Below, piece after piece: positions 6,923 to 52,397 of a stretch of 64,000 nt of DNA. Positions within the stretch are counted from its first letter, which is position 1, and each line of letters starts with the position of its first letter. A model generated the notes under the pieces. That model ran no database searches and had not been told where the DNA came from. It worked only from the letters and a program-made list of their open reading frames with translations. Source of the stretch: Vulcanisaeta moutnovskia 768-28. GTDB taxonomy: Archaea; Thermoproteota; Thermoprotei; Thermoproteales; Thermocladiaceae. The stretch lies in assembly GCF_000190315.1 (NCBI RefSeq), contig NC_015151.1, forward strand, positions 1,426,001 to 1,490,000, read 5' to 3'. A program made the position numbers and the translations under genes.

Positions 6923-6923
6923 A

Positions 6924-8162
6924 ATGCTAATTGCGCAATTAGCCGATATACACCTCGGTCATCGTCAGTACGGGCTAGAGGAGAGACTCGAGGATTATAA
7001 CAGGGCATTCCTGAACGCAGTTGATAGGCTCACCCAGCTTAGGGAGGAGAGGGGGTTGGATACCGTGATTATTAGTGGTGACTTCTTCGATACGCAGAGA
7101 CCATCACCAAGTATTTACATAACGGCGATTAGGGGATTAACAAGGCTTAGGGAGGTGGGTATTAAGGTCATAGCCATTAGGGGCAATCATGACTCATCAG
7201 TCATAAACTCCATTGAGAACCCACTTGCCGTGCTTCACCAGATGGGTCTAATCCAATACCTGGACAATGACTACGTAGATCTTGGCGGTGTTAGGGTGAT
7301 TGGTGTCGGCACGGTATACACTGACATGCAGAGTAAGTTAGTTAACTCACTAAATGCCCTGAGGAGTAATGGCATTAACATAGCCGTTATTCACCAATAC
7401 ATCGAGGGTGCACCGTACATATACCCAATGCCCAATGTCGATGTATTCATGATTAATGAAAAGCCACTGGCTCAGTTGGGCATTGACTACTTCGCTGTGG
7501 GGCATATACATGAGCATGGACTTAGGCATCCGAGGATTAACGCTGTTTACCCAGGCTCGTTGGAGGTTTGGGATGCCAGGGAGTTCGAGGTTTATGAGTA
7601 CGCTGATGGCAGGCTTAGGAAGGCCAAGGACATAGATCCAAAGGGCTTCCTATTGCTTGATGTTGGTGGTAATGGTGTGAAGGTCAGTAGCGTTAGGTTA
7701 GGTGTATCAAGGAGGCTCGTGAGGGTTAGGCTTAGGTATGATGAGGCCAAGCCCAGTGTCGTTAGGGGTGATGTATCCTACATAGCCAGTAACATAGATC
7801 AGAGGGGTTCTTTGGTGATCCTGGAGATTGAGGGTAAAGTAGCCAGTGGGTACTCCACGAGGGATTTCAATGCTATTGAACTTAGGAAACTCTTCACGAA
7901 GGCTTGGGTCGACATTAGGCTAAGTCTAGAGAGGCAGGTCAGTGAGAGACCCGTTAAGGTATTTGGTGGTATTAACGAAATCATTAGGCAAGCCCTAAGG
8001 TCAAGGTTGGGTAATGAGGAGTTGGTGAATACATTAATGGACATTATTGAGAGAGTTAGGGTGGATGATGAGGATGGCGCTCTTAAAACGCTTGAGGGCG
8101 TGGTCGGCGTACCGCTTAGGGGCGGTAAGTCAATAACTGACTGGCTGGGTGCTTCGAAGTGA
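6924..8162 (+). CDS. mre11: Mre11 DNA double-strand break repair nuclease
   Basis: A 412-residue calcineurin-type phosphoesterase, the manganese-dependent nuclease of the Mre11-Rad50 complex. All metal-binding motifs are visible: DIHLGH near residue 8, GDFFD, GNHD and GHIHEHG. A C-terminal Rad50-binding region follows. I chose the ATG at 6924, two bases after the herA stop, over the TTG at 6915 inside herA, because the protein then begins directly with the MLIAQLADIH strand. Its TGA overlaps the GTG start of rad50 (GTGA), so the three genes are translationally coupled. Confidence 0.92.
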   Translation: MLIAQLADIHLGHRQYGLEERLEDYNRAFLNAVDRLTQLREERGLDTVIISGDFFDTQRPSPSIYITAIRGLTRLREVGIKVIAIRGNHDSSVINSIENPLAVLHQMGLIQYLDNDYVDLGGVRVIGVGTVYTDMQSKLVNSLNALRSNGINIAVIHQYIEGAPYIYPMPNVDVFMINEKPLAQLGIDYFAVGHIHEHGLRHPRINAVYPGSLEVWDAREFEVYEYADGRLRKAKDIDPKGFLLLDVGGNGVKVSSVRLGVSRRLVRVRLRYDEAKPSVVRGDVSYIASNIDQRGSLVILEIEGKVASGYSTRDFNAIELRKLFTKAWVDIRLSLERQVSERPVKVFGGINEIIRQALRSRLGNEELVNTLMDIIERVRVDDEDGALKTLEGVVGVPLRGGKSITDWLGASK

Positions 8163-26273: not shown

Positions 26274-27135
26274 CTTTCAACATTCTATTGAAATCAACAA
26301 GCCCTACCAGGCGGAGCAAATGAGGGTAGAGGAAGTAGTGAGGACTTTCAATATTCTATTGAAATCAACAAATTGGGATGCGATTATGGTGATGGTGAAT
26401 GAAACTAAAGTGTGTAGACCCTTTCAATATTCTATTGAAATCAACAAGTGGCAATGGCATCGCCACTTTCAAGACCGTCAGCGTTCACTTTCAATATTCT
26501 ATTGAAATCAACCATTATTTTGATAAAGACCCTGTAAGTGACGGTTACATAGACATCTTTCAATATTCTATTGAAATCAACTAACCACGAGATTATTTTT
26601 CAGATTGCTAGTTTATTTCCGTAGCTTTCAATATTCTATTGAAATCAACTATTGAACCGTCAGCGTTGTTGTAGCCGTGGATAATGATTGCGTTCTTTCA
26701 ATATTCTATTGAAATCAACTACAAAAACGAAGTCAACGAATTTTGGGAACTGTGTAAAAATAATCCCTTTCAATATTCTATTGAAATCAACTGGGTAAGT
26801 AGCATCACCAGCCACAACACAAGCAGGTTCACGCTTTCAATATTCTATTGAAATCAACAAGGAGGAGCACGGTGACGACCCAAGGGGCGAGCTCTTCATG
26901 ATACTTTCAATATTCTATTGAAATCAACATGGAGAGCTGTTTGATAAGGCGTTGAAGTGGTGGAATTCACGCCTTTCAATATTCTATTGAAATCAACCTC
27001 AACAATCTCCTTACACGGGAGTCATAAATCCTGGATCATATCTTTCAATATTCTATTGAAATCAACAATGTTTTCAGCCTCGTTGTACGTGGGAATCACC
27101 GTACAAAGATCTTTCAATATTCTATTGAAATCAAC
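26274..27135 (-). CRISPR. CRISPR array 1: 13 repeats, 12 spacers
   Basis: Thirteen 25-bp repeats of plus-strand form CTTTCAATATTC...GAAATCAAC, separated by 42-51-bp spacers. The left-most repeat (26274) has a T-to-C change (CAACATTC), marking the leader-distal end. The leader is on the right, so transcription is on the minus strand. The transcribed repeat ends in ATTGAAAG, the usual 8-nt crRNA 5' handle. Translations of this stretch into peptides with repeated FQYSIEIN are artefacts. The repeat sequence is shared with array 2. Confidence 0.98.
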
Positions 27136-27325
27136 TGATTCGCCACTTTATTAGCCCATTTATAAGCATTACCCATACCCTCGGCTTGGCATTAATAAGA
27201 ACATAAATCCACATGGACATCTATGATGCGGATTTGTTCTGACGGTATTTATTGGGTGTTATTTTTTGTTCTGGTGATGACGTTCAATTTTGCATGAACG
27301 TAGATGTTCCAACGAGCCTTGCTTA
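27136..27325 (-). promoter_or_regulatory. CRISPR leader 1
   Basis: The leader adjoins the right end of array 1. Its first ~53 bp (ATTCGCCACTTTATTAGCCC and following) are identical to leader 2. A TATA box on the minus strand (GCTTATAAATGG, 27157-27170) lies about 25 nt from the first repeat, so array transcripts would begin at the repeat edge. A distal motif GTTCCAACGAGCCTT starts at 27306, 171 bp from the array. A second TATA-like GTTTATTTCC near 27331, on the plus strand, faces nurA. Confidence 0.8.
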
Positions 27326-27351
27326 GTTAGGTTTATTTCCCTGGTTTTCTA

Positions 27352-28434
27352 TTGCAATTCTGTGTGAGGGAGTTATTCGGCTTTGTTAGGGCTTTAGAGC
27401 GATTGAGGGATTTCGTTGGTGAGTTCATACCTGAGGATTCCATCGACTTGTCCGAGGGCGATCAATTCGAGGTTTCATGCAAGGGCGAGCTCACGACAGG
27501 GAGGGTTGAGGCCCTGGGCCAGGTTGGCAGTGTGGGTGTGGTTCTCGGCCTAGACTCCCAATCCTCAAGGCTTAGGTTTGAGGGTGTCGATGTTTACGTA
27601 GTCACCGGCGCGTTGGTGGGGCCCAGGAACGCCCTGGTTCCCGGCTTGCCCAATGCGCATTGGCTTGGTCTTAGGTTTCGATTTAGGGCTAATGAAGAGG
27701 CGTTGAAGGGTCTTGAGGGGGAGATTGGGGGCTTCGCCCTGGTTAGGTCCAGGGTTCTTGGTCGGGTGTTTGATGGTGCGTATAATGAGGAGGCGGTTAG
27801 GGATGAGGTTAGGACTGAGGTTGAGACTAGGCTTGTGGAGGAGTTCAGGGGCTTGGGGCTTGGTGATGCCCTCCTCATGGTTGATGGCCCGATATTCCCA
27901 ACGCCGAGGGTCCTAACAATGAGTGATAACCCATACGCGGAGCTCTACATGAGCTTCATCCAACGTAGGGTGGAGGCCCTACGCGGGGTGAGGGCTGTGG
28001 GTGTTGTTAAGAGGCTTGGCCAGTCAACGTACCTAGCCAAGTGCCTTGGGTTTGGCGTTGATGATGACACACTGGTGAAGAACCAGGTCACTAGGTCTTT
28101 GGGTGGTGGCGTCTACACGGCCGTTGTGGGGCCAATCACGATTAGGGTGGGTGACTACACGAAGTATTGCTGGTACGTTGCGTCGAGGCTCGGAAACTCG
28201 ATGAGCGTCGTTAGGGTTGAGGCCCTTGACAGGGATTTGGCAATGCTCGGCGCCGTGTATGTGGCGAGGACAATGGGACTCGATGGGGTCCCAATACCGA
28301 TAAGGCTGGCCGACAGGTTGGCGAGGAGGTTGAACGCGGGTATTACGAACCTACTCGCATCACTGGCGCCGCTTAGGCTTACATACGAGGGCCTCGAAGA
28401 ACTCAATAAGGCATTGAGGGAGTTGGGTGGTTGA
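27352..28434 (+). CDS. nurA: NurA-family nuclease (CRISPR-linked copy)
   Basis: A 360-residue NurA-like 5'-3' nuclease, an RNase H-fold enzyme that sits on the HerA hexamer. Recognisable blocks are VVLGLDSQSSRLRFEGV (first catalytic Asp), a middle acidic helix region, LLMVDGPIFPTP (second motif) and GVVKRLGQSTYLA. It is coupled to a herA-like gene (8-bp overlap). It begins right after CRISPR leader 1, while the housekeeping herA-mre11-rad50 operon at 5-10.6 kb has no nurA. The start is uncertain: TTG 27352 or GTG 27364, both 20-32 nt after a TATA-like GTTTATTTCC. This could be the cell's only nurA or a defence-associated second copy. Confidence 0.8.
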   Translation: MQFCVRELFGFVRALERLRDFVGEFIPEDSIDLSEGDQFEVSCKGELTTGRVEALGQVGSVGVVLGLDSQSSRLRFEGVDVYVVTGALVGPRNALVPGLPNAHWLGLRFRFRANEEALKGLEGEIGGFALVRSRVLGRVFDGAYNEEAVRDEVRTEVETRLVEEFRGLGLGDALLMVDGPIFPTPRVLTMSDNPYAELYMSFIQRRVEALRGVRAVGVVKRLGQSTYLAKCLGFGVDDDTLVKNQVTRSLGGGVYTAVVGPITIRVGDYTKYCWYVASRLGNSMSVVRVEALDRDLAMLGAVYVARTMGLDGVPIPIRLADRLARRLNAGITNLLASLAPLRLTYEGLEELNKALRELGG

Positions 28435-30157
28435 GGTGGGTCTTGGGGGAGTTGACTGCGTTAGTTATGTGGGCTTGATAACGAGGTTGATGCCCAGCTC
28501 CGTCTCTCTCGAGTCCGCAGAGGTACACATGGTGACTGAGTGCGATAGGGAGTTCCACGTCGGTGAGTACCTCGTTGTTGAGTCCAGGGGCTCCAATTAC
28601 CTGGCTAGGATTGCGGAGTCCAGGGTCGAGGACATATACTCAATAGCCAAGACCCCGGTACTATCCCTAGACCAGGAGTTGGCCATGGACGTGAAGTACG
28701 TGCCGAGGCTAATAAAGCTCGAGTTAATCTCAGAGTGTAGGAATAGCGATTGTGGACCGCCCACGAAGCCACCCGAAATACACTCCAGGGTTAGGGTCCC
28801 AGGCCCAGGCGAGGTCTCTAGGATGCTCTCCCTACCCAGTGCCGGGGTCGTCATTGGCGCCCTCGCGCTACCCAACGGCTCCTCCCTACCCGACAACCAA
28901 GTCCTGCTGCCCCTGGATGCCCTTAGGCACCACGTCCTCGTTGTTGGGACTACGGGCAGCGGCAAAACAACGCTCCTCAAGAACCTGGCGCTGGAGTTGG
29001 TTGGTAACTACGGTAAGGTTACCGTGGTGTCCCTGGACGCGGTTGGGCACTACCACCACCTACTGCTCAACAATGTCGATGTTAGGGTCCTAATGCCGGT
29101 GACCAGGGGTATGCTCAGGAGGTACCTGGGCAGTGGCGGTGATGTTAAGGACCTGGCCCACGCCCTGGTTAGGGACTACGTAAACAGCGCCTTCAAGTCC
29201 TTCGGCATAAGGCTTGGTAGGGCCAGGGTTAGGGCTAGGTTCGCGAGGAGGCGCAAGGGCGGTGTAAGCGTGGTTAGGGAGGTCAGGGTAATGCCGGGTA
29301 ATTTGAGGGCCGGCGTAACCATCATACCCTGGGCTCTGAGGACCAGGGCTATACTGTATAGGGTTAATGACGTGACTGGGATGCTCACGGAGCAGGCCAG
29401 GATGTTCTACGGGAGGGTGATCAAGGCGGTGAGGGATAAGGTGCCTGGCGAATTAACGTTTAGGAAAATATACAATCACTTGATAAGCCCCAGCGAGGTT
29501 CAGGAGCGCGGTAGGAGGCTGCTTAATTACGAGGTCATTGCCAGAGACCTCGGGATTCACGAGAGCACCCTCCAGAACATAATTAGGACTATACTGGCGA
29601 TTATTGAGACGGGGGTAGTCGACGTTAAGCGCGGAAACGTGGTCGTCCCAGAGCCTGACTACAGGGAGGCCCTGAGGCCGGGCTACGTCGTGCTTCACTT
29701 AGCCAATGTGTTGCCCATGGCCCAGAGGGTCATGGTTTACAGGGTGTTGGACGTGGTCTATAGGTTCATGGGGCTCGAACACCTGAGGGATAGGGAGAGG
29801 ATGAGTGCGGTACTCGTCGATGAGGCACACCTATTCTTCCCACAGACCAGGAGTGAGGATGAGAAGGCGATGCTCGAGAGGCACCTCACGAGGCTCACAA
29901 GGCTCGGTAGGGGTAGGGGTATAGCCGTTGTCTTCGCGACCCACATGCCCACAGACCTAAACGACGCGGTGATACAGCTCACGAACACAAAGATTGTGCT
30001 CAGGAGCGACGAGAAGGTCCTGGAGAGGTTGGGAATACCCAGCAGTGAGAGGAGGTTCCTAACCACCGCAACCGCCGGGCTCGCCTACGTAACCACCTTC
30101 GCCTATAGGTACCCGGTGTACGTGAGGATAACCCCAAGGGCGTACCACGTGGGTTAG
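28427..30157 (+). CDS. HerA-like DNA translocase (CRISPR-linked copy)
   Basis: A 576-residue HerA/FtsK-superfamily ATPase. Walker A is GTTGSGKTT (about residue 174), Walker B is AVLVDEAHLFFPQ (about 460), and a downstream sensor is FATHMPTDLN then NTKIVLRSD. The N-terminal ~110 residues form a HAS-barrel-like beta region (HVGEYLVVES). It differs from the operon HerA at 5000: no SWIM-like tail and a Cys-containing N-terminal insertion (ECRNSDCGPP). It overlaps nurA by 8 bp, so the two should form one DNA-processing machine. Its 3' end overlaps the convergent CARF gene by 4 bp. Confidence 0.83.
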   Translation: MVEVGLGGVDCVSYVGLITRLMPSSVSLESAEVHMVTECDREFHVGEYLVVESRGSNYLARIAESRVEDIYSIAKTPVLSLDQELAMDVKYVPRLIKLELISECRNSDCGPPTKPPEIHSRVRVPGPGEVSRMLSLPSAGVVIGALALPNGSSLPDNQVLLPLDALRHHVLVVGTTGSGKTTLLKNLALELVGNYGKVTVVSLDAVGHYHHLLLNNVDVRVLMPVTRGMLRRYLGSGGDVKDLAHALVRDYVNSAFKSFGIRLGRARVRARFARRRKGGVSVVREVRVMPGNLRAGVTIIPWALRTRAILYRVNDVTGMLTEQARMFYGRVIKAVRDKVPGELTFRKIYNHLISPSEVQERGRRLLNYEVIARDLGIHESTLQNIIRTILAIIETGVVDVKRGNVVVPEPDYREALRPGYVVLHLANVLPMAQRVMVYRVLDVVYRFMGLEHLRDRERMSAVLVDEAHLFFPQTRSEDEKAMLERHLTRLTRLGRGRGIAVVFATHMPTDLNDAVIQLTNTKIVLRSDEKVLERLGIPSSERRFLTTATAGLAYVTTFAYRYPVYVRITPRAYHVG

Positions 30158-30921
30158 CACAAACCCCTAGCACCAAGTAACTCCCTGAGCCACCTGGGAA
30201 CCCTATAACCACCGCCATCCCTAACCACAAACCCAAGCCTAAGCAACTCACTGAGCATTTCGGCACTGGGCATGATGCCCACGTCAATACTACACAACGC
30301 CCTAGCAACCTCAGGCCTTAGGGTTATGGGGAGCCTCGGCAGGACAATCAATGGGCCACCCTCCACTAGGTATACGGGCCTCGCATCCGTCAACCACGCA
30401 ACCATGGAGGCGAGCACAGCCTCGAGCTTAGTACCGCCGGTTATAACCACGTAGGTCTCGAAACCCCTCGAGGAGTAGTTCAGGAGTCTCCTACCCATTA
30501 CGTCGACGAAGGACGACAAACCACCCTCGAGATCACCACCAAAGAGGGAGACCTGCGTCGCGCCCAGAACCCTAACGCCGCTCAATACGCCTTTGCTCAC
30601 ACAGTTAGCAATCACCATGGCACAAAACCAACTGGTCTTAGTATCCGTGTAGAAGAACTCAACGTCAAACCCACCAACCAATTCCCTAAGCCGAACCAGG
30701 CTACCGAGCTCCGCACAACAACTAGCCAAGTCACCACAGGCGTAATCCACCAACTCCCTGAACAGACCACTGCCAAGCCCGAGCATGCCAAGCGCGACAT
30801 CAGCCCTGGAGTCGCCGAGCAGGGCCTTGCTTACTACGTCCACGTGAGACTTAATGGCGCCCCTATCAAGGGCATTCCTAAGCAGTGAAACACCAACAAT
30901 CACAGCAACGTAAGCACCCAC
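30154..30921 (-). CDS. CARF-domain protein, ring-nuclease-like (APE2256/Crn1 type)
   Basis: A 255-residue protein resembling the APE2256/Crn1 family, whose known members bind and cleave cyclic tetra-adenylate. The N-terminal strand and loop (VAVIVGVSLLRN, Ser12) match the nucleotide-binding loop of the CARF fold. The second hallmark is VVITGGTKLEAVLASMVAWL, with Lys165 in the position used for cA4 cleavage. The C-terminal ~60 residues look like a winged helix (SAEMLSELLRLGFVVRDGGGYRVPRWLRELL). It lies at the outer end of the Cmr minus-strand block, 57 bp downstream of csx1. It may be a signal-off enzyme or a cOA-responsive regulator. Confidence 0.72.
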   Translation of the reverse strand: MGAYVAVIVGVSLLRNALDRGAIKSHVDVVSKALLGDSRADVALGMLGLGSGLFRELVDYACGDLASCCAELGSLVRLRELVGGFDVEFFYTDTKTSWFCAMVIANCVSKGVLSGVRVLGATQVSLFGGDLEGGLSSFVDVMGRRLLNYSSRGFETYVVITGGTKLEAVLASMVAWLTDARPVYLVEGGPLIVLPRLPITLRPEVARALCSIDVGIMPSAEMLSELLRLGFVVRDGGGYRVPRWLRELLGARGLC

Positions 30922-30978: not shown

Positions 30979-32304
30979 TCAAGCCTGCTTATACCTCAAG
31001 CCCAGCTTATTAAGCACGACATCATCAACATCCAAGCAGTAATCATCGTCGCATTTCTCTACATACGTGCAATCCTTAAGCAGCCCCGCATGAGCAATGG
31101 CATTCCTCTCGAAAACCTCATCCCTCTCCCCCGAACCACACTTGATAAACTCCTCCCCCAACAATTCCGCGTAGAGCACCTTATCCTTTACCAATTTACC
31201 ACTCCTCTGGATAGCATTGCCCAGGTTATTCAGCTCGTTTATTACCAACTTGCCAACTACTTCATTCACCTTACTGTACAGTTTAGACGCATCACTCATC
31301 AACGCGTACAGCTTATTCCTCGATTTACCACATATTAAGTCCTCAAGGGCTTCCTCGTAATAATCCATGTACTTACCACGCACGCCGCTGTAGTCAACCC
31401 TCATCACCTCCTTACCGCCCTCATCGTCCCTTCTTACCTCAATTCTTACATTAACCCCTTGTAAATGCCCCTTACCCTTCGATCTTTGACCACACAGTTT
31501 ATGCACAATTATCGGCAGACCCATACTGAAGGCCTTGACTACGGGCGATGAGGGCCCTTCAGGCAATACTATGGTCCTCACCCGCTCACTAAATACCTTT
31601 ATGTAATTCCATGTCTGCGGCATCGCGTTAAACACCTTTATGATGACTTCATCGACGCCCTTGAGCAGTGCCAGCGATGCGGCGAGTCTGGTGGCGAACA
31701 ACGTCAGTGTTGGCATGAAGTTTATTCCATGCGTCACGTCGAGTATTACTTTCACGTGTTCGTCTTCATTGACGACGTCATTAATGGCGCTCCACAGCTC
31801 GTGTATGAGCTCCATCATCATTAGGTCAGGGTAACTGTTGTAAATCCACGTATTTATCCCGTAGTACTTGCCCATGGTTGACGTTATAACAACCCTAAGC
31901 TTATCATCATTAATACCCCACCTATTGGCTAGCCTTCTTACGTATTCCTCAACAATCGATCTCCACACTTTATCATAATTACCGCTGGTTGGCTCAACCA
32001 TAACCGTCAATTTACCCTCCCCACCTCCCTCCTCCCTTAACTGCACCTTTCCGTCTTGTTTCAGGCTCTTGAGCACTTCATAAGCATCATTATTCTTTGG
32101 CTGCGTACTAACGGTTATGACGCTGTCAACCACGTATATTACGTACCTATCGACCTTATCCCTATTAATACACACCATTGACGAGTACCCACGCGCCCTA
32201 CCGCTTCTCACAGCATCATCCTCACCGTCGCAGGCGTACTCAACATTGTCCCAACTTAGTGGGTTTCCCCAGGTCGCTATGTATATAGTCTTTGTACTGG
32301 TCAT
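30979..32304 (-). CDS. csx1: Csx1 family cyclic-oligoadenylate-activated RNase (CARF-HEPN), intact
   Basis: A 441-residue type III ancillary effector. The N-terminal CARF domain (about 1-240) starts IYIATWGNPLSW and contains VKVILDVTHGINFMPTLT, the cOA-binding signature. The C-terminal HEPN domain carries RNAIAHAGLL near residue 405, the catalytic RX4H motif. It would be switched on by cyclic oligoadenylate made by Cas10 and cut RNA non-specifically in the cytoplasm. The start overlaps the cmr3 stop by 4 bp, so it is part of the cas10-cmr3-csx1 operon. It is the only one of three csx1 genes in the window with an unbroken frame. Confidence 0.88.
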   Translation of the reverse strand: MTSTKTIYIATWGNPLSWDNVEYACDGEDDAVRSGRARGYSSMVCINRDKVDRYVIYVVDSVITVSTQPKNNDAYEVLKSLKQDGKVQLREEGGGEGKLTVMVEPTSGNYDKVWRSIVEEYVRRLANRWGINDDKLRVVITSTMGKYYGINTWIYNSYPDLMMMELIHELWSAINDVVNEDEHVKVILDVTHGINFMPTLTLFATRLAASLALLKGVDEVIIKVFNAMPQTWNYIKVFSERVRTIVLPEGPSSPVVKAFSMGLPIIVHKLCGQRSKGKGHLQGVNVRIEVRRDDEGGKEVMRVDYSGVRGKYMDYYEEALEDLICGKSRNKLYALMSDASKLYSKVNEVVGKLVINELNNLGNAIQRSGKLVKDKVLYAELLGEEFIKCGSGERDEVFERNAIAHAGLLKDCTYVEKCDDDYCLDVDDVVLNKLGLRYKQA

Positions 32305-33266
32305 AGCGACACCCTATATATGGATCCATAGCCAAGCTCCGAAAGCAGCCCTATCGCCAACGCATCCCTGCACTCATCCTTAAGCCTCACCACAGTCCCC
32401 TGAGGCAATGCCTGAAGTATGGGCCTCCTAAACCTGCAGACCTCGCTAAACCCAAGCCCAATGTTAATCACCCTAACCTTAAACTTCTCCCCATCAAAAA
32501 CCCCATAAACCTCCTCAACACACTTCAAGCCCCTTACATTACCCACATCAGCCGTGGGGTCTTCGCTACTGAAGAGAATAGGCTGCAGGGCCACTGCGTA
32601 TTTGCCAGCCCTGGGTGGTTCAACGTTATTACCACCTTCAATTAATGCAAACCTACCCTCACCCCCAAGTCTAATTACTATATCTGAGGTTAGGTTAAGG
32701 TTCTTTAATAGGTATATGAACTTAACATCGTGGTCCCTATAGTTTACGTACGATGACTTAAACATGGCTTCAGTAACATGGGCATCGCCTATGTCTACCC
32801 CAACCCTAGTATTTATACTAGCGTATTGGATAAACATTTTATTAAGCTCATCAATTAGTTTCTTCGCCTCATCCTGACCCCTCATGGAGGCGTTTACGTA
32901 TGCTTTAAGCCCATCGACCCCTATGGCCCTTATACCCATAGGCGCGTAATACTTGCCGTCAATGAGCAGTAGAGGTCCCCATAGGCACGGCTCCTGGCTT
33001 AGTAAATCACCTAGGTTGGGGCTACAGTTGAGGAGCTTATGAGCCAGTTGCTTTAGGTCATCAAAATCGTACACGCCGCCTTTAACCTTACCGCAATCAA
33101 TGCTAAGCGATATATCCATGGCATTACCTAGGGCACCTAGTATGGTGCTCGGTGGCGGTACTGCGGTTGATTCGTCTGTGAAGAATTCCTCAGCGGTTCC
33201 TAGATTCCTAACACCGAGGTGTAGTGGCTCCAGGGGCCTTACCTGAACCACCCTATATGCGCTCAT
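32301..33266 (-). CDS. cmr3: Cmr3 (type III-B Cas5-group subunit)
   Basis: A 321-residue Cmr3, the RAMP subunit that caps the 5' handle of the crRNA and contacts Cas10. The N-terminal family pattern is clear: VVQVRPLEPLHLGVRNLG, then TDESTAVPPPSTILGALGNA and the CLWGPLLLIDGKYYAP region. The C-terminal LLSELGYGSIYRVSL includes the glycine-containing loop. It overlaps cas10 upstream (4 bp) and csx1 downstream (4 bp). Size and order fit a III-B locus. Confidence 0.87.
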   Translation of the reverse strand: MSAYRVVQVRPLEPLHLGVRNLGTAEEFFTDESTAVPPPSTILGALGNAMDISLSIDCGKVKGGVYDFDDLKQLAHKLLNCSPNLGDLLSQEPCLWGPLLLIDGKYYAPMGIRAIGVDGLKAYVNASMRGQDEAKKLIDELNKMFIQYASINTRVGVDIGDAHVTEAMFKSSYVNYRDHDVKFIYLLKNLNLTSDIVIRLGGEGRFALIEGGNNVEPPRAGKYAVALQPILFSSEDPTADVGNVRGLKCVEEVYGVFDGEKFKVRVINIGLGFSEVCRFRRPILQALPQGTVVRLKDECRDALAIGLLSELGYGSIYRVSL

Positions 33267-36200: not shown

Positions 36201-36469
36201 CACCTATCCATTGACGATGCGACAGCGTCGGCGTGTTTAACAAGCCTATAGGCTGGGTCGTTAACGTCATGCATGTCTCCGAGGGGGTCTGTTAAGCCTA
36301 GCTTATACCAAATGGCCGCCGCCTCATCCTCATGGGCCCCCGTTCTTAGGTATTGCTCATGAAGGCACCTACCCTTACCCATAATGACCCACATCTTGTT
36401 GGATGGATCGTGGAGCAGCGCCCAGGCCTTCGCCTTGAAGTACTTAAGCCAATCAAAGCCACTACTCAT
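33263..36469 (-). CDS. cas10: Cas10/Cmr2 (type III-B large subunit)
   Basis: A 1068-residue large subunit. Near the N-terminus ALLHDPSNK (His20-Asp21) is the HD nuclease motif. A zinc site CSIC is visible at about 568. The first Palm domain has IIKGDADNIG near 745, and the second Palm has SGGDDVLAL at about 836, the intact GGDD cyclase motif. It should therefore sense target RNA, make cyclic oligoadenylate and perhaps cleave single-stranded DNA. First gene of the minus-strand block. A TATA box (36488-36500) lies 25 nt before the ATG and is back to back with the cmr4 promoter. Confidence 0.92.
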   Translation of the reverse strand: MSSGFDWLKYFKAKAWALLHDPSNKMWVIMGKGRCLHEQYLRTGAHEDEAAAIWYKLGLTDPLGDMHDVNDPAYRLVKHADAVASSMDRWLLGEAVSQGGVFRYSKLHNIFNPSYSIELPNNVDCGAVSRHVETLRSVMNSLSNFNDNVEKARVKYHALYALYELTWINEGLPPSLADTRMPTHTVFDHSYATALTINMLWSDGEVNGYLVEVDIPGIQRIVNSARKAGDFWVGSWLVSMLAWLTVWPLVWEYGPDLVIRPTLRLNPIYHATLIGALSRTLPRTLERDNIIDTIKNITSRFYLKTMINIDVKETDITQQFIREPIIPGTMTLIMPSIAASDEGKVVEILSGNFERAYNCLLNLAFNGEVNDKYCTDVLPRKIDDGGDTLLKISRKLYSMLNKSGVFKDLISVRINAVNLHDVYECLLSHIRGASDKCLIGGVELTGDDLKMFSEDRSSKLRLPRELRETLREKGVEVSDEELAKFLIMHMGLRILNKVAQVRARKRLTVGKAWFHYNDSTIKKPITADNVDAYSEYVFKKANREDVGFIYCSICGEEPAIVHLRKAPGGLNYADDTIDMLKKSLELTTDDEIGNLRFRVKPGEALGPLCLLKRTLYYRLKRGRYTSFDSTEDVAFAWYDMRISGYVVSKLPNSDEHRECRNVKDYIVGEPPKDITKICGLECTLEVARRLFNSCIDKASISHDDKVKLINELSRDLDIDDSLRALIKGVDDSLLKFRSYYAIIKGDADNIGELSKGDIPLDGYYKLLTELSKVAENAGARELSDAYAKLSSVMHGLGGLIVSPTYLATLSMALMITALRDIYITEYKYAVKGLIFSGGDDVLALTPVETSLTTVRDMRRNYWGDGGFHRIGDGYHIAAPVIGGFGRSFSVRFVNIMDNMNEEVKETIELLEGISKKAEWSLNQVRLKKDTLTISESRTGMRAVIPLSDGKQGSVANMIDALNQLFIARLGKVLSGNLPEDFDEYLQLINQLVVSNRGDVLNDVWGLIIRRNAESREYESKVAELFSLSNLANITGIDAAARLEIKASPSGSYLINELVKAYRVLRGYP

Positions 36470-36487
36470 TATACTTGGGACTTCCTT

Positions 36488-36539
36488 ACGCTTTTAAGCA
36501 TTAAGCATGGTTGCGTACTACGTAAAGCTTTAAAATTTA
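36488..36539. promoter_or_regulatory. Divergent promoters of the two Cmr blocks
   Basis: On the minus strand a GCTTAAAAGCG box (36488-36500) is about 25 nt from the cas10 ATG at 36469. On the plus strand an AAAGCTTTAAAATTT box (36527-36539) is about 24 nt from the cmr4 ATG at 36557. Both spacings fit leaderless transcripts and a shared regulatory gap of under 90 bp. Confidence 0.65.
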
Positions 36540-36556
36540 CGTTGGGTATCTATGCA

Positions 36557-37612
36557 ATGAGTCAGCAAGCGCAGAGACAGGGGGTACAAGAGGCTAGGTC
36601 CTTATTATTCATTGAGGCCTTGACACCAATGCACCCGGGCCTTGGTAGGGGTGGTGAGGGCTTCGTAGACCTGCCGATACAGAGGGATGAGTTCGGATTC
36701 CCAACGATATGGGCGAGCAGCCTTAAGGGTGCCATTAAGTCCTCACTACTCCTATCCTGCAATAACGAGGCTGATAATGTTGAGAGGGCTGTGTGTAGGA
36801 GGAGGGTGCTGCTAGCCTTCGGGCCCGAGACTGAGGAGGCCTCTGAATACGTATCATCAATCTCGATACTCGATGCCAGGCTAGTGCTGGTACCGGCCAG
36901 GTCGCTGAGGGGTGTGTGGACCTACGTAACGTCGCCACACCTCCTCAATTACCTAGCGACGTATCTTGAGATTGTCGGTGATAAAGAAAGGCTTAGTGCC
37001 CTAAGGGAAGTGCTTAACCTCGTTAGGGGTAGGAATGCGGTGACCAGCAGGAAGGAGGTTTTGGTGGGTTCTGGTGGGCAGAGCTACGTGGTACTTAACG
37101 AGCAGGAGTTAGCCGCGGAGCATTCGGATGCGCTTACTAAGCTAGGTGAATTACTTCCACGTGAGGTATCTGATCTCGTTAAGGAGAGAGGAGTCACAGT
37201 GATTAGCGATGAGCTTGTGAACAATATAGTTAGGAGGAGCCTCGTGATTCAGCCCAGGATAAGGCTAGACTACGCGAGCAAGACCGTGGTAAGCGGTGGA
37301 TTGTGGGAGGAGGAGTACCTACCACAATTTACCGTGCTAGCATCCGTAATCATATGTAGAAGGATTAGACTTGCAGGATTGCCCGACAACGAGTTGAAAG
37401 AGAGGCTAAATCAATTAGCTGATAATGACTCTAAGAATAAGAAATATGGTAATGTTAGCAAAGATGAATTGATTAAGGCATACGACGACTTAATTCACAA
37501 TAAATTAGTAGATGCAAACAGCGTATGCAGCGATGTTAAGTCCCTGAGATCCATGGCGTTTGGAGGTAAGGAGACCGTGGGTAAGGGATTGGCGAGGCTC
37601 ATGTGGGTTTAG
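36557..37612 (+). CDS. cmr4: Cmr4 (type III-B Cas7, backbone and RNA cleavage subunit)
   Basis: A 351-residue Cas7-group RAMP that forms the filament along the crRNA. In active complexes it cuts target RNA at 6-nt intervals. The N-terminal block FIEALTPMHPGLGRGGEGFVDLPIQRDEFGFPTIWASSLKGAIK has the family motifs, including the Asp-containing loop and SSLKG. The C-terminal FGGKETVGKGLARLMW supplies the glycine-rich loop. I start at ATG 36557, which fits the TATA box 24 nt upstream; the longer frame to 36353 would overlap cas10 antisense. The cleavage Asp is probably in FVDLPIQRD. Confidence 0.88.
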   Translation: MSQQAQRQGVQEARSLLFIEALTPMHPGLGRGGEGFVDLPIQRDEFGFPTIWASSLKGAIKSSLLLSCNNEADNVERAVCRRRVLLAFGPETEEASEYVSSISILDARLVLVPARSLRGVWTYVTSPHLLNYLATYLEIVGDKERLSALREVLNLVRGRNAVTSRKEVLVGSGGQSYVVLNEQELAAEHSDALTKLGELLPREVSDLVKERGVTVISDELVNNIVRRSLVIQPRIRLDYASKTVVSGGLWEEEYLPQFTVLASVIICRRIRLAGLPDNELKERLNQLADNDSKNKKYGNVSKDELIKAYDDLIHNKLVDANSVCSDVKSLRSMAFGGKETVGKGLARLMWV

Positions 37613-38098
37613 GTGAAGCCTATGCAGGCCCAAAACAACGCCCTTGACTTAGCAATCAGGTGCATGGACACGGTTAAGCAAGTCTTCGGCAATAAGGGCG
37701 ACATACCGGAGGGCTTTAGGTCAAGGGCCAGGGACATCCCATCAAGCCTCTATTACGGCGGTGTGCTCTATACGTTAGCCTACGTAGCCTCAAAGGCAAG
37801 CAAGGACAAGGCCTCCGGCGACGACCTGCTCATGCAAGCCTTCCAACGTGATGACATGGTGACCCTCTTTAAGGAGTGGTTTGAGAAAAAACTTGTCGAG
37901 GATGAGGCGTATGAACTGTACGGTGCCTGCCTAATGAGGGCGATCAGGGAGTTGGTGGGGATTGGTAAGGCAAACTCCCTGACGGACATCTTGAGGATGC
38001 TGAACGAGCCGGGGATGGGCATAATCGCCGAGAGGAGGCTCCTAGAGTTCGCCGAGTGGCTTAAGAGGTTGGCGGAAGCCGTGGTGCAGAAGGGGTGA
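37613..38098 (+). CDS. cmr5: Cmr5 (type III-B small subunit, Cas11)
   Basis: A 161-residue all-helical small subunit. The family hallmark is FRSRARDIPSSLYYGGVLYTLAYVASKA (about residues 35-62), contacting target RNA along the filament. The GTG start follows the cmr4 stop with no gap; ATG 37622 is an alternative. Order cmr4-cmr5-cmr1-cmr6 with zero or negative spacing shows one transcript. Confidence 0.85.
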   Translation: MKPMQAQNNALDLAIRCMDTVKQVFGNKGDIPEGFRSRARDIPSSLYYGGVLYTLAYVASKASKDKASGDDLLMQAFQRDDMVTLFKEWFEKKLVEDEAYELYGACLMRAIRELVGIGKANSLTDILRMLNEPGMGIIAERRLLEFAEWLKRLAEAVVQKG

Positions 38099-39607
38099 TT
38101 GGCCTTGGCCTATGTGGAACTAAGCCTAACCCTGGACACCCCATTCCTGCCAGGCTCAGCGGACCCAAACAGGGTTGACCCGGACTGGCCATTGAGGCCC
38201 AGTGAGGTTAAGGGGATTTGGCGCTGGTGGGCTAGGGCATTGGTGGCCGGCGCACTCTTCGAGAGGGGACTACTGCACGGCGAGCCAACGTCAAGCATAG
38301 TTAAGGTCCCCACTAGTGAGGAAGCATCGTGCATCTCGAGAATTGTTGGCTTAAATCTAGAACTCGGCTATGCCGGTAAGCGTGACTCGAGGGCTTCATG
38401 CATTAGAATCATAATTAACCCTGATGATCAACAACTCTTACCCTCTCAATTAATTACTGATGAATTAATTAATATATTTCAAAGAATTAAGCTATTAACT
38501 TTGAGAAAGAGCAAAAAGGTAAAGGTCAAGTATAGAAGCGATATCGATAGGGGTAAAGTTAAAGTGAACCCTGAGGTTATGAAAGAGCTTGATATTGAGG
38601 ATAAGATTGAGATTATCATAAAAAGTAAGTTCAAAAGAAAATCAAGGAAAAACATATTCATTGCAATACCTAGTGATGATGTTCCTAAGGGTGAAATTTG
38701 GTGCAATGAAAACGATGCGAAAAAATTAGGCATTAACAATAATACTGTCATTATTAGAGCACCGATATCGCTTGAATATATTGCCGTTAATAGGACAATA
38801 AAGCTCATAATTGATAAGAACCCATTCTGTAAACTTAATGGAGCGGCTGTAGAGGCATCACTGAGCGCCCTGGCCCTCGCCCTAAAGTATTCATGCTTTG
38901 GTAAGGGTGGTAGAAGAGGCCTTGGATGCTTTAGCATCAATGCTTCTGGTCCTTATTCAAAATTATTCATGATGGATGCTAAGGAATTAATAAACTACGC
39001 AGTTGAGAGAGTGAGTAAAGTCGTGGATTCCGCGATCAAGGACTGCAGGTTGAAGGAGAGTAAGTTGGATAAGTGCGAGTTGCCACCAATGCCCGTCATT
39101 AGTAAGGGCATTAATTACATAGACTGCGTCGAAAATAGTGAGGTAAGGAACTCAATAAGCAAGGCCCTAAACAACGCTCTACACCCATACATGCTTATTA
39201 AGGTGACTGGGCCCAACGTGTTGGACACGCTACATAACTTCTTCCTGAGACCCCGCAGGACTATTGCGCTCCTCGGCAGTCATCACCGGAATGATGATCT
39301 AAGGGCCACGTACAACGCTTGGGTGCTGGGCCTACCTAGGGAGCAGAAAAATACTGGCTACATGATTAAGTCCAGCGATGTGAGCAGGAGGGCGTCGCCG
39401 TTCATTGTCTCGGTCCACGGCGATAGGGCCTACGTGAGCGTATTCACGTCTGCCGACTGGCCCACGCAGCTTGAGTGGCGTGGCGCTGGTTCGCAAAGTA
39501 TAAGTGTAAACCAGGGTAGGGTCATAAATGCCATAGCCATAGCACTTAAGGAGCTGATCGACTATTCAAGTAAGAGCGGGCTTCAGGTGGTGAGGGTATG
39601 GCCGTAG
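38099..39607 (+). CDS. cmr1: Cmr1 with an inserted WCNE domain
   Basis: A 502-residue Cmr1, the RAMP at the 3' end of the crRNA. The N-terminal half has the diagnostic SEVKGIWRWWARALVAG (about 35-51). The C-terminal half has FGKGGRRGLGCF (about 262-275), the glycine-rich loop. Between them, about residues 137-222 form a foreign-looking domain (KVNPEVMKELDIEDKIEI, IPSDDVPKGEIWCNENDAKKLG, IIRAP). It aligns with the free-standing 122-residue protein at 1573-1941. DNA of the insert and its flanks is visibly more A/T-rich than the rest of the gene. The start is TTG 38099. The rest of the protein looks functional and overlaps cmr6 by 10 bp. Confidence 0.83.
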   Translation: MALAYVELSLTLDTPFLPGSADPNRVDPDWPLRPSEVKGIWRWWARALVAGALFERGLLHGEPTSSIVKVPTSEEASCISRIVGLNLELGYAGKRDSRASCIRIIINPDDQQLLPSQLITDELINIFQRIKLLTLRKSKKVKVKYRSDIDRGKVKVNPEVMKELDIEDKIEIIIKSKFKRKSRKNIFIAIPSDDVPKGEIWCNENDAKKLGINNNTVIIRAPISLEYIAVNRTIKLIIDKNPFCKLNGAAVEASLSALALALKYSCFGKGGRRGLGCFSINASGPYSKLFMMDAKELINYAVERVSKVVDSAIKDCRLKESKLDKCELPPMPVISKGINYIDCVENSEVRNSISKALNNALHPYMLIKVTGPNVLDTLHNFFLRPRRTIALLGSHHRNDDLRATYNAWVLGLPREQKNTGYMIKSSDVSRRASPFIVSVHGDRAYVSVFTSADWPTQLEWRGAGSQSISVNQGRVINAIAIALKELIDYSSKSGLQVVRVWP

Positions 39608-40461
39608 ATTTACTGAGGGGCCTATCACCTTCACCGACCGTTAACGTATCGAGTTACCTAAGGCTTGGGCTCATAAACCTAGTCATGAGTAGACGCCAGG
39701 GGCAAAGGGTGGGTAAGGGACGCAGCGGTGAGAACCTTAAGGACGCACTTAATGAGTATAATAGGGACGCAATGAGGCTCATAACTGAGGTCTACAGGTG
39801 CGACAATGTTGGTGAACTGCTCAGGAGGGTTGATGATTGGGTTAAGGAGGAGGTCGAGGCGCTGGAGGACTTGGGGTATGGGGTCGTGTTTAACGCCGTG
39901 ATACCGCTAATGACCAGGTTGGCCATTGGGTTGAGGCACCCTTACACGGAGCCCCTTGAGCCAGCAATAGCCTGGGACCCGTACTGGAACCTACCCTACA
40001 TACCGGCCTCATCGCTTAAGGGCGCCATGAGGTCTATAGCGGAGACGAACAACCACCCGTGCGCAAAGGCGCTCGGCGAGCGAAATGAGGCGTCTACCGT
40101 GGTGGTCCTAGACTCATACCCAACGTACTGCCCACCGGGTAGGGGCCTACTCACGCTCGACATAATAAATCCACACTACAAGGAGGTAAGTGGTGAAATA
40201 AGCGAGGCCGAGTCAAACCCAACACCGCTGGTTTTCCTAACGGTATCAAGGGGCGTGGGATTCAGGGTAGTCATACTCACAGCCAGGAATAGGCTCAGGG
40301 AGAAATGCGGTGGCGCGGTTGCGGAGGACTACGTATACGCAGACGCCAAGTGTAATAAGGCATGTACAGTGAAGGAGTTGGAGTGGCTAATCAATAAGGC
40401 CCTCCAAGGCGGCATAGGCGCGAAGACGGCCTTGGGCTACGGAGTGTTCAAGGTGCAATGA
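39598..40461 (+). CDS. cmr6: Cmr6 (type III-B RAMP subunit)
   Basis: A 287-residue Cas7-like RAMP near the 3' end of the crRNA. Conserved features: a helical N-terminal half, then AVIPLMTRLAIGLRHPYTEP, the hallmark LPYIPASSLKGAMRS (about residues 140-154), DSYPTYCPPGRGLLTLDIINPHY, and the C-terminal GGIGAKTALGYGVFKV glycine-rich loop. It closes the cmr4-5-1-6 block. Downstream, a very AT-rich 50 bp separates it from the ATPase cassette, which has its own promoter. Confidence 0.87.
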   Translation: MAVDLLRGLSPSPTVNVSSYLRLGLINLVMSRRQGQRVGKGRSGENLKDALNEYNRDAMRLITEVYRCDNVGELLRRVDDWVKEEVEALEDLGYGVVFNAVIPLMTRLAIGLRHPYTEPLEPAIAWDPYWNLPYIPASSLKGAMRSIAETNNHPCAKALGERNEASTVVVLDSYPTYCPPGRGLLTLDIINPHYKEVSGEISEAESNPTPLVFLTVSRGVGFRVVILTARNRLREKCGGAVAEDYVYADAKCNKACTVKELEWLINKALQGGIGAKTALGYGVFKVQ

Positions 40462-42699: not shown

Positions 42700-43581
42700 G
42701 TGCTTAGGATTGCGATCCTATCAACGGTGGGCACTAGCCTACTCGGCAACATTGAGAGGAATATCAACAGGCTAGGCCTGAGTCAAGTGTCGAGGGAGGT
42801 GTTTGGTAGGCAGCCTAGTAGGTTGTCCATCAATGACGAGTTGCAGGGGCAGTTCGAAAGGTGGGCTGAGGAGGGTGGTGATGTCCTTGAGGATGCGGTT
42901 AAGGCATTAAGCACCGACCCGGCTGGCTTCAGTGCGGAGCTCAACTCAATAATTGCGTTCCTAAGGTCCCTACCGGCTAGGCACGTTATCAATGAATTAA
43001 GGCTTCAATTCTACCCAACAGACACAGGCACGTCCAGGTTCTGCGCGAGGGCGATCACGGAGTACCTGAGGAGATATGGGAATGAGTTCAGGGGGTTGAC
43101 CGGGATACCGACGAGCGCGGCGTTGGTGGTTGATGATTCCGTGACGCTCAAGGGCTTTGGTAGGGATGTTGATTGGTTTAGGGAGGGCTTGGTCGACCTA
43201 ATGGACAAATTCGTGGGTAGGGTGATTGAGCTTAGGAGGGGTGGTTACAGGGTCGTTGTAAACCCGACAGGGGGCTTCAAGCCTGAGTCCGCGTACCTAA
43301 CCCTCATGGCGATGCTGGCAGGGGCGTGGAGGGTGATATACATACACGAGACGTTCAGGGAAATAGTCGAGTTGCCAATGCTTCCAATAACCATAGACCC
43401 CAGGTACGTAGACGCACTCACGCAGATAATGAAGGGCAAGGGAACAAGCAAGGGCATACTCCAGCAATTGGGTATTGACGTTGAAGACCTCGCGGATAAG
43501 GAGTTAGTAGGCATAACCGACAGCGAGGTACACGTTAAGGAATGGGTAAAGAAACTACTCGAAATACTCACAAACAAGTAA
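42700..43581 (+). CDS. CARF ring nuclease (APE2256/Crn1 family)
   Basis: A 293-residue member of the APE2256 family, of which Crn1 degrades cyclic tetra-adenylate to switch off type III effectors. The N-terminal loop is AILSTVGTSLL (Ser13 in GTS). The second hallmark is VVVNPTGGFKPESAYLTLMAMLAGA, with Lys194, followed by YIHETFREIVELPMLPI. These are the two active-site elements known for the family. A C-terminal winged-helix-like part follows (SKGILQQLGIDVEDLADKELV). It stands alone with its own TATA box between the ATPase cassette and array 2. Confidence 0.83.
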   Translation: MLRIAILSTVGTSLLGNIERNINRLGLSQVSREVFGRQPSRLSINDELQGQFERWAEEGGDVLEDAVKALSTDPAGFSAELNSIIAFLRSLPARHVINELRLQFYPTDTGTSRFCARAITEYLRRYGNEFRGLTGIPTSAALVVDDSVTLKGFGRDVDWFREGLVDLMDKFVGRVIELRRGGYRVVVNPTGGFKPESAYLTLMAMLAGAWRVIYIHETFREIVELPMLPITIDPRYVDALTQIMKGKGTSKGILQQLGIDVEDLADKELVGITDSEVHVKEWVKKLLEILTNK

Positions 43582-43787: not shown

Positions 43788-44870
43788 CCTTCAACATTCT
43801 ATTGAAATCAACTTGATAATAATCAAGCCCGATGGTTCACTACTTGTTCATACTAATGACTTTCAATATTTTATTGAAATCAACCTGTTTGAGCTTGTGC
43901 CTGCTATTTTGGCGCGAGACATACATAAGGCTTTCAATATTCTATTGAAATCAACTCTACACGGCGTACACTCTCGACCCGACGAGCGTCAAGGACTGCG
44001 AGAACTTTCAATATTCTATTGAAATCAACGAAGAATTGCGTGAGGTGATGGTGCGTGGCACAAAACAATTGGACTTTCAATATTCTATTGAAATCAACAC
44101 GAATTGAACGATATTGTAGCAAATATGCGCGACATTGCAACTTTCAATATTCTATTGAAATCAACACCCAGAGGAAAGCATTGAGGAATACTGTGATTGT
44201 GAGTGTAGCTTTCAACATTCTATTGAAATCAACCGTGATAGTTATGTCAGAGGGAAAGGCAAGCGTGAAGGAATGCTTTCAATATTCTATTGAAATCAAC
44301 TTAAGACTTATTCAAAAGCAGCGCTGCCTGATGGGAGAGTCCTTAATCTTTCAATATTCTATTGAAATCAACACGAAGAACCACGGTTTTCCAATATCCG
44401 TTGACGACTTAATACAGTACCTTTCAATATTCTATTGAAATCAACAAGGTACATAATAGTGATGTCAGAGCAGTACCTGGACTTCTTGCTTACTTTCAAT
44501 ATTCTATTGAAATCAACGAAACGTGATAATTGAAATATACCAAAATGAATCATGTGTGTGTAACTGCTTTCAATATTCTATTGAAATCAACCGTACTGCT
44601 CATTAACCGCCGCAGGCTGTGTACCTATTGGCGCTTTCAATATTCTATTGAAATCAACCCGAGGACAATATGGGTACCGACCTAGGTGGTGGAGCCACAA
44701 TGTATGCTTTCAATATTCTATTGAAATCAACTGAAAACACATGACCACAACCCAAACCGAAAACCTTGGGGAAACCCACTTTCAATATTCTATTGAAATC
44801 AACTCCTGGGAATCCACATTACATTGCAAGTGTGCAGATTATAGACTTTCAATATTCTATTGAAATCAAC
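43788..44870 (-). CRISPR. CRISPR array 2: 16 clear repeats, 15 spacers
   Basis: Sixteen 25-bp repeats of the same type as array 1, spacers 41-50 bp. Variants occur at the left end (CCTTCAACATTC at 43788; TTTTATTG at 43860) and at 44209 (CAACATTC). The degenerate left end and the leader on the right give transcription on the minus strand. A further, heavily decayed repeat is likely at 43719-43743 with a normal-length spacer between (see findings). Shares repeat and leader with array 1. Confidence 0.98.
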
Positions 44871-45091: not shown

Positions 45092-45937
45092 GTGCGCCTT
45101 GGCTTTGTGGGTGTTGTTTTTGTTTTCCGCATTGCCCTTAGGCCCTCGTCAGCTCTCGTTTTAACCAACTTCACAGGCTCCATAGCCATGTCCGTGACCC
45201 TGAACATACTGGGCACGGTGGATGCCGAGCTGGCTAGGCGTATTCACGACTCGAGGGGTCCAAAGCCCATGAGCGTCACACCACTCACGCTTAGGGGCAA
45301 GGTACTGTGGAGAGGTAGGCACATCATCGCTCCTGGCGAGGCGGTTCAATTCAGGGTATCGGCGCTAGGTGATGTGGGCGTTAAGCTCCTGGACGCACTG
45401 GATAGGACCAATGAGGCGAGGCTCTTCGGCGTCAATGCAAGGGTCGAGGTGTTGGGTGCGGAGGTGGTTAGGCTGGGTGAGTTGTTCAGCCCTGGGCCCA
45501 GCTCCTTCGGTGTTGAGTTCCTATCGCCGATTAGGTTTGCTAGGAGGAGGACCATGAGGCGTAGGAGGGTTAAGTATGAGTTCTGCCCAAACATTGAGAA
45601 CATAATCAAGTCAACACTGAACTACTGGCTTAGGACCATCGGCGATGGAGAGTTCAGGGACTGGCCCAGGCTCCTGAGGTGGGTCTATAACTACGTCTAC
45701 ACGAGGGATATATACGGCAGGGTGGTGTCCACGAAACTACCAAACAGCGACCAACCGCAGCTGGGCTTCATCGGTAGGGCCGAGTACGAGATAAGGAGCA
45801 AGAGGGAGGGCAGGATAAGGCAGTTCTGGGCATTGATGAGGCTCGCCGAGTTGATGAACACGGGGACCACGAGGTCGATAGGCTTCGGACACATAAAAAT
45901 AACAAGCACAAAGACAAAACAAGCACCAAGGCAATAA
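45092..45937 (+). CDS. cas6: Cas6 CRISPR RNA endoribonuclease
   Basis: A 281-residue Cas6 of the ferredoxin-fold RAMP type. It cuts the repeat RNA to release crRNAs with an 8-nt 5' handle, serving all three arrays. The N-terminal strand is VFVFRIALRPSSALVLTNFTG. The C-terminal glycine-rich loop is TTRSIGFGHIKI (about residues 258-270). The start is uncertain: GTG 45092 or GTG 45107; the second lies 25 nt after the TATA-like CTTTTAAATCC and begins nearer the conserved strand. It is the only cas6 that I find in the window and faces away from array 2. Confidence 0.82.
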   Translation: MRLGFVGVVFVFRIALRPSSALVLTNFTGSIAMSVTLNILGTVDAELARRIHDSRGPKPMSVTPLTLRGKVLWRGRHIIAPGEAVQFRVSALGDVGVKLLDALDRTNEARLFGVNARVEVLGAEVVRLGELFSPGPSSFGVEFLSPIRFARRRTMRRRRVKYEFCPNIENIIKSTLNYWLRTIGDGEFRDWPRLLRWVYNYVYTRDIYGRVVSTKLPNSDQPQLGFIGRAEYEIRSKREGRIRQFWALMRLAELMNTGTTRSIGFGHIKITSTKTKQAPRQ

Positions 45938-52377: not shown

Positions 52378-52397
52378 ACCTTTTATATAAGTCATAA

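What the first reader, a model, noticed from the sequence alone, without database searches (positions are those of the whole stretch)
27136..30157. A NurA-HerA pair placed directly behind a CRISPR leader, while the repair operon lacks nurA
nurA and a second herA-like gene begin at the outer edge of leader 1 and are transcribed away from the array. The housekeeping herA-mre11-rad50 operon in the same window has no nurA. The two HerA proteins differ in length and termini. Either the only nurA has moved into the CRISPR island, or this is a separate DNA-processing machine linked to defence or spacer capture. NurA-HerA end processing could produce fragments for adaptation.
Basis: partly seen in the sequence, partly recalled or inferred. 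Interest (0 to 1): 0.7.

Follow-up and report, generated by a model that had tools for sequence, protein, structure and literature searches.

The report
CRISPR-linked NurA-HerA-CARF DNA-degrading module
A DNA-pumping motor and a DNA-cutting enzyme sit beside a CRISPR array together with a third gene that resembles sensors of CRISPR alarm molecules; the cluster was described in 2012 and looks more like a weapon of type III CRISPR immunity than a helper for storing new memories.

Summary
The genes are as described: nurA (27352-28434) and herA (28427-30157) overlap by 8 bases, start at the outer edge of leader 1, and the herA-mre11-rad50 operon (5000-10570) has no nurA. But this is not the only nurA: the closed genome holds five. 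The pair is the published Thermoproteales nurA-csm6-herA cluster (PMC3396285) and matches PADLOC's "Type III coevolved" NurA and HerA models over nearly their whole length. Such a gene lies inside or beside the pair in 21 of 22 assessable loci, whereas an array lies within 1 kb of nurA in only 4 of 11 near-closed genomes. In near-closed genomes the pair always occurs with Cas10 (12 of 12), but Cas1 is missing in 2 of 12, which also lack Cas2. This favours a type III effector role over spacer capture. In one genus, however, the module sits in a row with cas4, cas1 and cas6. Best mechanism: HerA feeds invader DNA into NurA, with CARF7 sensing cyclic oligoadenylate; that last step is inference. 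Largely known; modest interest.

The parts
26274..27135 (-). CRISPR array 1, 13 repeat copies; leader side at the right (degenerate repeat at the left end)
   Evidence: orientation from the degenerate distal repeat and the shared leader
27136..27327 (-). leader 1, alike to leaders 2 and 3
27352..28434 (+). nurA, type III-linked NurA nuclease
   Evidence: PF09376 54.7 bits; PDLC01056 422.6 bits, residues 5-358; D68 and D178 invariant in 19 sequences
28427..30157 (+). herA, type III-linked HerA translocase
   Evidence: PDLC01055 810.9 bits over residues 4-576; Walker A residues 176-181 and E466-A467-H468 invariant in 17 sequences
30154..30921 (-). CARF7/APE2256 protein, third member of the module, convergent with herA
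   Evidence: PF09651 65.8 bits; CARF7 model 211.2 bits; AlphaFold2 mean pLDDT 89.4; best fold match SSO1393 3qyf, TM 0.83
30979..32304 (-). csx1 (CARF-HEPN ribonuclease)
32301..33266 (-). cmr3
   Evidence: TIGR01888 48.8 bits, below its cut-off of 100.4; PADLOC Cmr3 53.6 bits
33263..36469 (-). cas10/cmr2 (type III-B) with a GGDD motif
   Evidence: TIGR02577 169.7 bits; GGDD at residue 837
36353..40461 (+). cmr4, cmr5, cmr1, cmr6 (the listed cmr4 start is probably too early)
42700..43581 (+). second, stand-alone CARF7 with a GTS motif (ring nuclease-like)
43789..44870 (-). CRISPR array 2, same repeat
45092..45937 (+). cas6, the gene outside leader 2
   Evidence: TIGR01877 54.5 bits, below its cut-off of 58.65
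46920..52395 (-). type III-A cassette: cas10a (GGDD), csm5, csm4, csm3, csm2
5000..10570 (+). housekeeping herA-mre11-rad50 without nurA

Best explanation
The pair belongs to the CRISPR-linked nurA-csm6-herA cluster of Thermoproteales and works as an accessory DNA-degrading arm of type III CRISPR immunity. Shown here: the unit is a triad of NurA, HerA and a CARF7 protein; NurA and HerA keep their motif residues; the triad goes with Cas10 somewhat more closely than with Cas1; both local Cas10 proteins keep the GGDD motif of the nucleotide cyclase. Inferred: target RNA recognition makes Cas10 produce cyclic oligoadenylate; the CARF7 protein binds it and licenses or loads the HerA-NurA complex, or switches the signal off afterwards; the HerA hexamer pumps double-stranded invader DNA into the NurA dimer, which cuts both strands.
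For: PADLOC 'Type III coevolved' models match NurA (422.6 bits) and HerA (810.9 bits) almost end to end. PDLC01056 matches at E<=1e-15 in 23 of 45 genomes of the order; in 398 phylum genomes every match of 200 bits or more is in this order, the best one outside it being 97.9 bits. A CARF7 gene lies within 400 bp of, or between, nurA and herA in 21 of 22 assessable loci of 23. In 11 near-closed genomes the linked NurA is within 31 kb of Cas10 in 11 of 11 (the twelfth, G025, lies about 11 kb from Cas10 on its contig); the 46 other NurA hits of the 15 genomes in that table are within 30 kb of Cas10 in 1 of 41, of Cas1 in 0 of 38 and of CARF7 in 0 of 38. Near-closed genomes: triad NurA with Cas10 12 of 12, with Cas1 10 of 12; the two without Cas1 also lack Cas2. 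GGDD in both window Cas10 proteins. Thermococcus kodakarensis HerA-NurA cuts both strands of dsDNA with ATP, and its authors suggest an antiviral role and cite the nurA-csm6-herA cluster (PMC12977600, passages).
Against: No complex, no cOA binding and no nuclease activity was tested. Five draft genomes carry the NurA without a Cas10 hit by either model (G004, G005, G007, G014, G039), and G005 shows no Cas gene other than CARF7 recognised by the 17 window-derived profiles in the 20 kb fetched. In G007 the module stands in a row cas4, cas4, cas1, CARF7, cas6, nurA, herA, CARF7, as an adaptation link would predict. The window CARF7 keeps Ser12 and Lys165, so it may simply be a ring nuclease. In this genome the CARF7 gene is on the opposite strand and cannot share an operon with nurA-herA. 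Association numbers are small and not corrected for kinship (Cas10 p = 0.05 in 16 genomes, 0.016 in 45).
Confidence: 0.55

Rival explanations
1. Adaptation factor: NurA-HerA makes or trims pre-spacers, or repairs the array after spacer integration (proposed by Bernick et al. 2012).
For: nurA starts 217 bases from the last repeat; the 2012 paper proposes it; in G007 the module is in line with cas4, cas4, cas1 and cas6; Cas1 within 6 kb of nurA in G028, G030, G035.
Against: Near-closed genomes G002 and G025 keep the module with Cas10 but have no Cas1 or Cas2 hit; in G000 and G015 Cas1 is 72 kb and 515 kb away; G018 and G032 have Cas1 and no such NurA; an array lies within 1 kb of nurA in only 4 of 11 near-closed genomes.
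Confidence: 0.2
2. A spare DNA-repair NurA-HerA pair that merely sits in a defence island.
For: Fold and motifs are those of ordinary NurA and HerA; four other nurA genes show that this family multiplies in the genome.
Against: One ortholog group stays with CARF7 across six genera of two families, and near type III genes in near-closed genomes, while other NurA paralogues do not. It is absent in both near-closed genomes that have no Cas10 hit, G018 and G042.
Confidence: 0.12
3. The CARF7 neighbour is only a ring nuclease that resets type III signalling, and NurA-HerA acts without any cOA control.
For: Closest solved structures are SSO1393 and the ring nuclease Sis0811; Ser12 and Lys165 are kept; partner CARF7 proteins keep GTS in 6 of 25 readable rows.
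Against: 19 of 25 partner rows depart from the GTS motif that PMC10018336 calls a signature of cOA cleavage, against 5 of 18 other CARF7 rows; in family f3 relatives a short CARF7, lacking the motif II lysine in 7 of 9 rows, overlaps the nurA end by 4 bases in most loci; the gene stays with the pair even where no other Cas gene was recognised nearby (L063, L065).
Confidence: 0.25

Closest known systems
nurA-csm6-herA CRISPR-associated cluster of Pyrobaculum, Thermoproteus and Vulcanisaeta (Bernick et al. 2012, PMC3396285)
   Same: Same three protein families, same order of archaea, near a CRISPR array; the paper names the Vulcanisaeta distributa pair.
   Different: In Pyrobaculum csm6/APE2256 lies between nurA and herA and appears co-transcribed with nurA; here it is convergent and follows herA. 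The paper predates cOA signalling (recalled) and favours adaptation.
PADLOC models PDLC01056 (NurA) and PDLC01055 (HerA), 'Type III coevolved'
   Same: Almost full-length matches of 422.6 and 810.9 bits.
   Different: PADLOC gives no mechanism; its likely source paper (Shah et al. 2019, recalled) is not held.
Archaeal HerA-NurA end-resection complex (Sulfolobus, Pyrococcus, Thermococcus)
   Same: Fold and motif residues.
   Different: A separate paralogue with no mre11-rad50 beside it; 25% identity to the housekeeping HerA of the same window.
CARF7/APE2256 proteins SSO1393 and Sis0811 (ring nucleases)
   Same: Closest fold of the third member, TM 0.83 and 22% identity.
   Different: GVS instead of GTS in motif I; tied to nurA-herA.
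Bacterial Sir2-HerA and HerA-DUF4297 anti-phage complexes
   Same: HerA motor paired with an enzyme partner in defence (passage in PMC12977600).
   Different: Other partner enzymes, no CARF partner, no CRISPR link (recalled).

Membership tests
nurA-csm6-herA CRISPR-associated cluster | adjacent nurA and herA of the CRISPR-linked ortholog group | tested here: met
nurA-csm6-herA CRISPR-associated cluster | csm6/APE2256 gene in the cluster | tested here: met
   30154-30921, PF09651 65.8 bits
nurA-csm6-herA CRISPR-associated cluster | near a CRISPR array | tested here: met
   217 bases
nurA-csm6-herA CRISPR-associated cluster | csm6 co-directional with nurA (seen in Pyrobaculum; not stated as required) | tested here: not met
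   opposite strand here and in L052, L053
HerA-NurA nuclease-translocase complex | Walker A and Walker B of HerA, RNase H-like acidic residues of NurA | tested here: met
   the ten closest folds of NurA are NurA structures, though the model has mean pLDDT 65.9
HerA-NurA nuclease-translocase complex | physical 6:2 complex | not testable with these tools
   needs protein
Type III CRISPR accessory effector | co-occurrence with Cas10 | tested here: met
   12 of 12 near-closed genomes; 18 of 23 of all
Type III CRISPR accessory effector | cOA binding by a CARF domain controls the effector | not testable with these tools
   CARF fold predicted; binding untested
Adaptation module | occurs only with cas1 and cas2 | tested here: not met
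   G002 and G025
Ring nuclease (Crn1) | GTS motif I and lysine in motif II | tested here: inconclusive
   GVS with Ser12, and Lys165 kept

The most novel reading that the evidence does not exclude
A second-messenger-gated DNA shredder: a CARF7 protein that has lost ring-nuclease activity senses Cas10-made cyclic oligoadenylate and switches on a HerA-NurA motor-nuclease that destroys invader dsDNA processively. This would be a three-protein, ATP-driven class of type III effector; in Pyrobaculum and Thermoproteus relatives a degenerate short CARF7 fixed to the nurA operon would serve as a non-binding partner subunit.
Probability: 0.3. Interest if true: 0.75.

Novelty: already known. Interest (0 to 1): 0.4.

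Why it matters
The pair and its CRISPR link have been in print since 2012 with an adaptation model for which my searches showed no test. The comparison here turns it into a sharper, testable question: does the CARF7 partner make HerA-NurA a cyclic-oligoadenylate-controlled DNA-degrading arm of type III immunity? The cOA-activated DNA cutters Can2 and Card1 (named) are single proteins with a fused nuclease (recalled); a motor-driven version built from separate subunits would be a new design.

Tried and rejected
'Only nurA in the genome': rejected, five PF09376 loci. 'HAS-barrel missing as a mark of difference': dropped, the Pfam model finds no HAS-barrel anywhere in this genome, the housekeeping HerA included. 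Spread on viruses: a scan of viral contigs with alignment A1 matched 71 stretches, none encoding a relative. Named relatives: the one scan of genome contigs gave only 4 loci. Clean motif-I split between partner and other CARF7: not clean (6 of 25 versus 13 of 18 with GTS, p = 0.002 without correction for kinship); three of the five non-GTS 'other' rows (L070 2760, L099, L100) are one group near cas1 in the genus of L070. Rows left out of the 25: L055, L059 (motif column gapped), L057 10564 (start unsure), L067 12531 (fragment). Left out of the 18: L097 (two), L098 520, L101, L102 (no readable N-terminus). The NurA AlphaFold2 model is weak (mean pLDDT 65.9), so its fold matches only back up the Pfam hit. 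Missing arrays in draft genomes (1 of 12 loci with an array) were not used as evidence, since arrays are often lost in such assemblies.

Full report
What is there. The window lies in a closed 2,298,983-base archaeal chromosome. nurA (27352-28434, TTG start) and herA (28427-30157) overlap by 8 bases and run away from array 1, whose 13 repeat copies span 26274-27135. The three leaders in the window align over about 190 bases, so leader 1 fills almost the whole gap between array and nurA; leader 2 is followed in the same way by cas6. The repair operon herA-mre11-rad50 (5000-10570) has no nurA, but the genome has five PF09376 loci. By the coordinates, only the CRISPR-linked nurA has a DUF87 (HerA-type) hit within 20 kb; PMC3396285 reports the same singular pairing for V. 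distributa.

What it is. Pfam calls NurA (54.7 bits) and HerA (DUF87 37, HerA_C 36.9). PADLOC's 'Type III coevolved' NurA and HerA match at 422.6 and 810.9 bits over almost the whole proteins. Bernick et al. 2012 (abstract, one whole section and passages read) describe a CRISPR-linked nurA-csm6-herA cluster in Pyrobaculum, Thermoproteus and Vulcanisaeta, report three or more paralogues of the gene pair in most Pyrobaculum, and propose a role in adaptation. The finding is therefore known.

The missing third member. herA overlaps by 4 bases the end of a convergent gene at 30154-30921, a CARF7/APE2256 protein (PF09651 65.8 bits, CARF7 211.2 bits). Its AlphaFold2 model (mean pLDDT 89.4) is closest to SSO1393 (TM 0.83) and the ring nuclease Sis0811 (TM 0.72 to 0.83). 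Around 22 homologous nurA loci of other genomes plus the window (23 in all), a CARF7 gene lies between nurA and herA or within 400 bp of them in 21; in L066 the contig ends, and L073, the most distant NurA (67.6 bits), has none. In contrast, an array lies within 1 kb of nurA in 4 of 11 near-closed genomes and within 6 kb in 10 of 11. L063 and L065 show the triad with no other Cas gene recognised by the 17 window-derived profiles in the 20 kb fetched. So the constant partner is the CARF7 gene, not the leader.

Type III or adaptation. The NurA group is found in 23 of 45 genomes of the order and, at 200 bits or more, nowhere outside it among 398 phylum genomes. In 16 near-closed genomes (at most 10 contigs, about 99% complete) the table of NurA against Cas10 (both, NurA only, Cas only, neither) is 12, 0, 2, 2 and against Cas1 10, 2, 2, 2. 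In all 45 it is 18, 5, 9, 13 for Cas10 (p = 0.016) and 17, 6, 10, 12 for Cas1 (p = 0.07); these p values ignore kinship. The five NurA-bearing genomes without a Cas10 hit are drafts of 50-90 contigs. G002 and G025 lack Cas1 and Cas2 and keep the module; the G002 triad is full length, while the G025 contig ends about 2 kb beyond nurA without a HerA call. Other NurA paralogues serve as control: 46 hits in 15 genomes, 1 of 41 within 30 kb of Cas10 and 0 of 38 within 30 kb of Cas1 or CARF7. Against this, G007 has cas4, cas4, cas1, CARF7, cas6, nurA, herA and CARF7 on one strand in about 8.6 kb, and Cas1 is within 6 kb of nurA in three near-closed genomes. The balance favours type III; an adaptation link is not excluded.

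How it may work. NurA keeps invariant acidic positions (D68, E152, D178, D321 among 29 invariant columns of 19 sequences); that D68 corresponds to the catalytic Asp49 of T. kodakarensis NurA is inference from motif order. HerA keeps Walker A and a Walker B of the form DEAH. T. kodakarensis HerA-NurA degrades both strands of dsDNA using ATP and may be antiviral according to its authors. Both window Cas10 proteins keep GGDD. PMC10018336 (discussion section read in full) treats the GTS triplet of motif I as a signature of cOA cleavage. The window partner has GVS, the stand-alone CARF7 at 42700 has GTS; overall GTS is kept in 6 of 25 readable partner rows and 13 of 18 others. Ser12 and Lys165 are retained in the window partner, so loss of cleavage is a guess. 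In family f3 (Pyrobaculum and Thermoproteus relatives) a short CARF7 of about 150-190 aa overlaps the nurA end by 4 bases in most loci and lacks the motif II lysine in 7 of 9 rows. From this I infer cOA sensing that controls, or shuts down, a DNA-degrading HerA-NurA machine.

Literature limits. Searches for NurA, HerA and CRISPR, for type III accessory proteins, for APE2256 and ring nucleases, for the CARF superfamily and for cyclic oligoadenylate listed no paper whose title, abstract start or read passages propose cOA control of NurA-HerA; most subscription papers are not held, and Shah et al. 2019 and the CARF classification paper could not be read. A 2023 clustering study lists NurA and HerA among putative CRISPR auxiliary genes (figure legend passage).

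Noticed in passing
window 5000-6922: The housekeeping HerA has a C-terminal tail absent from the CRISPR-linked HerA, with a cluster of Cys and His that recalls a small zinc finger (CxxC...CxH).
   Followed up: no
window 40513-41496 and 52443-53519: Two AAA ATPase genes beside the type III-B and III-A cassettes, weakly like AriA-type defence ATPases (61.6 and 46.8 bits), each followed by a small open frame.
   Followed up: no
window 56144-56364: A short third array with a variant repeat and a diverged leader; all three arrays share orientation and nearly the same repeat.
   Followed up: partly
G002 and G025 (loci L053, L066): Near-closed relatives with type III Cas10 but no Cas1 or Cas2 hit: immune systems that apparently cannot acquire spacers on their own.
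   Followed up: partly
L070 91-8663: A cas4-cas4-cas1-CARF7-cas6-nurA-herA-CARF7 gene row on one strand in one genus; its first CARF7 carries GIS instead of GTS.
   Followed up: partly
L067 3634-18695: In draft genome G012 the type III-B locus with nurA, herA and CARF7 is broken into many frames (Cas10 in three pieces).
   Followed up: no
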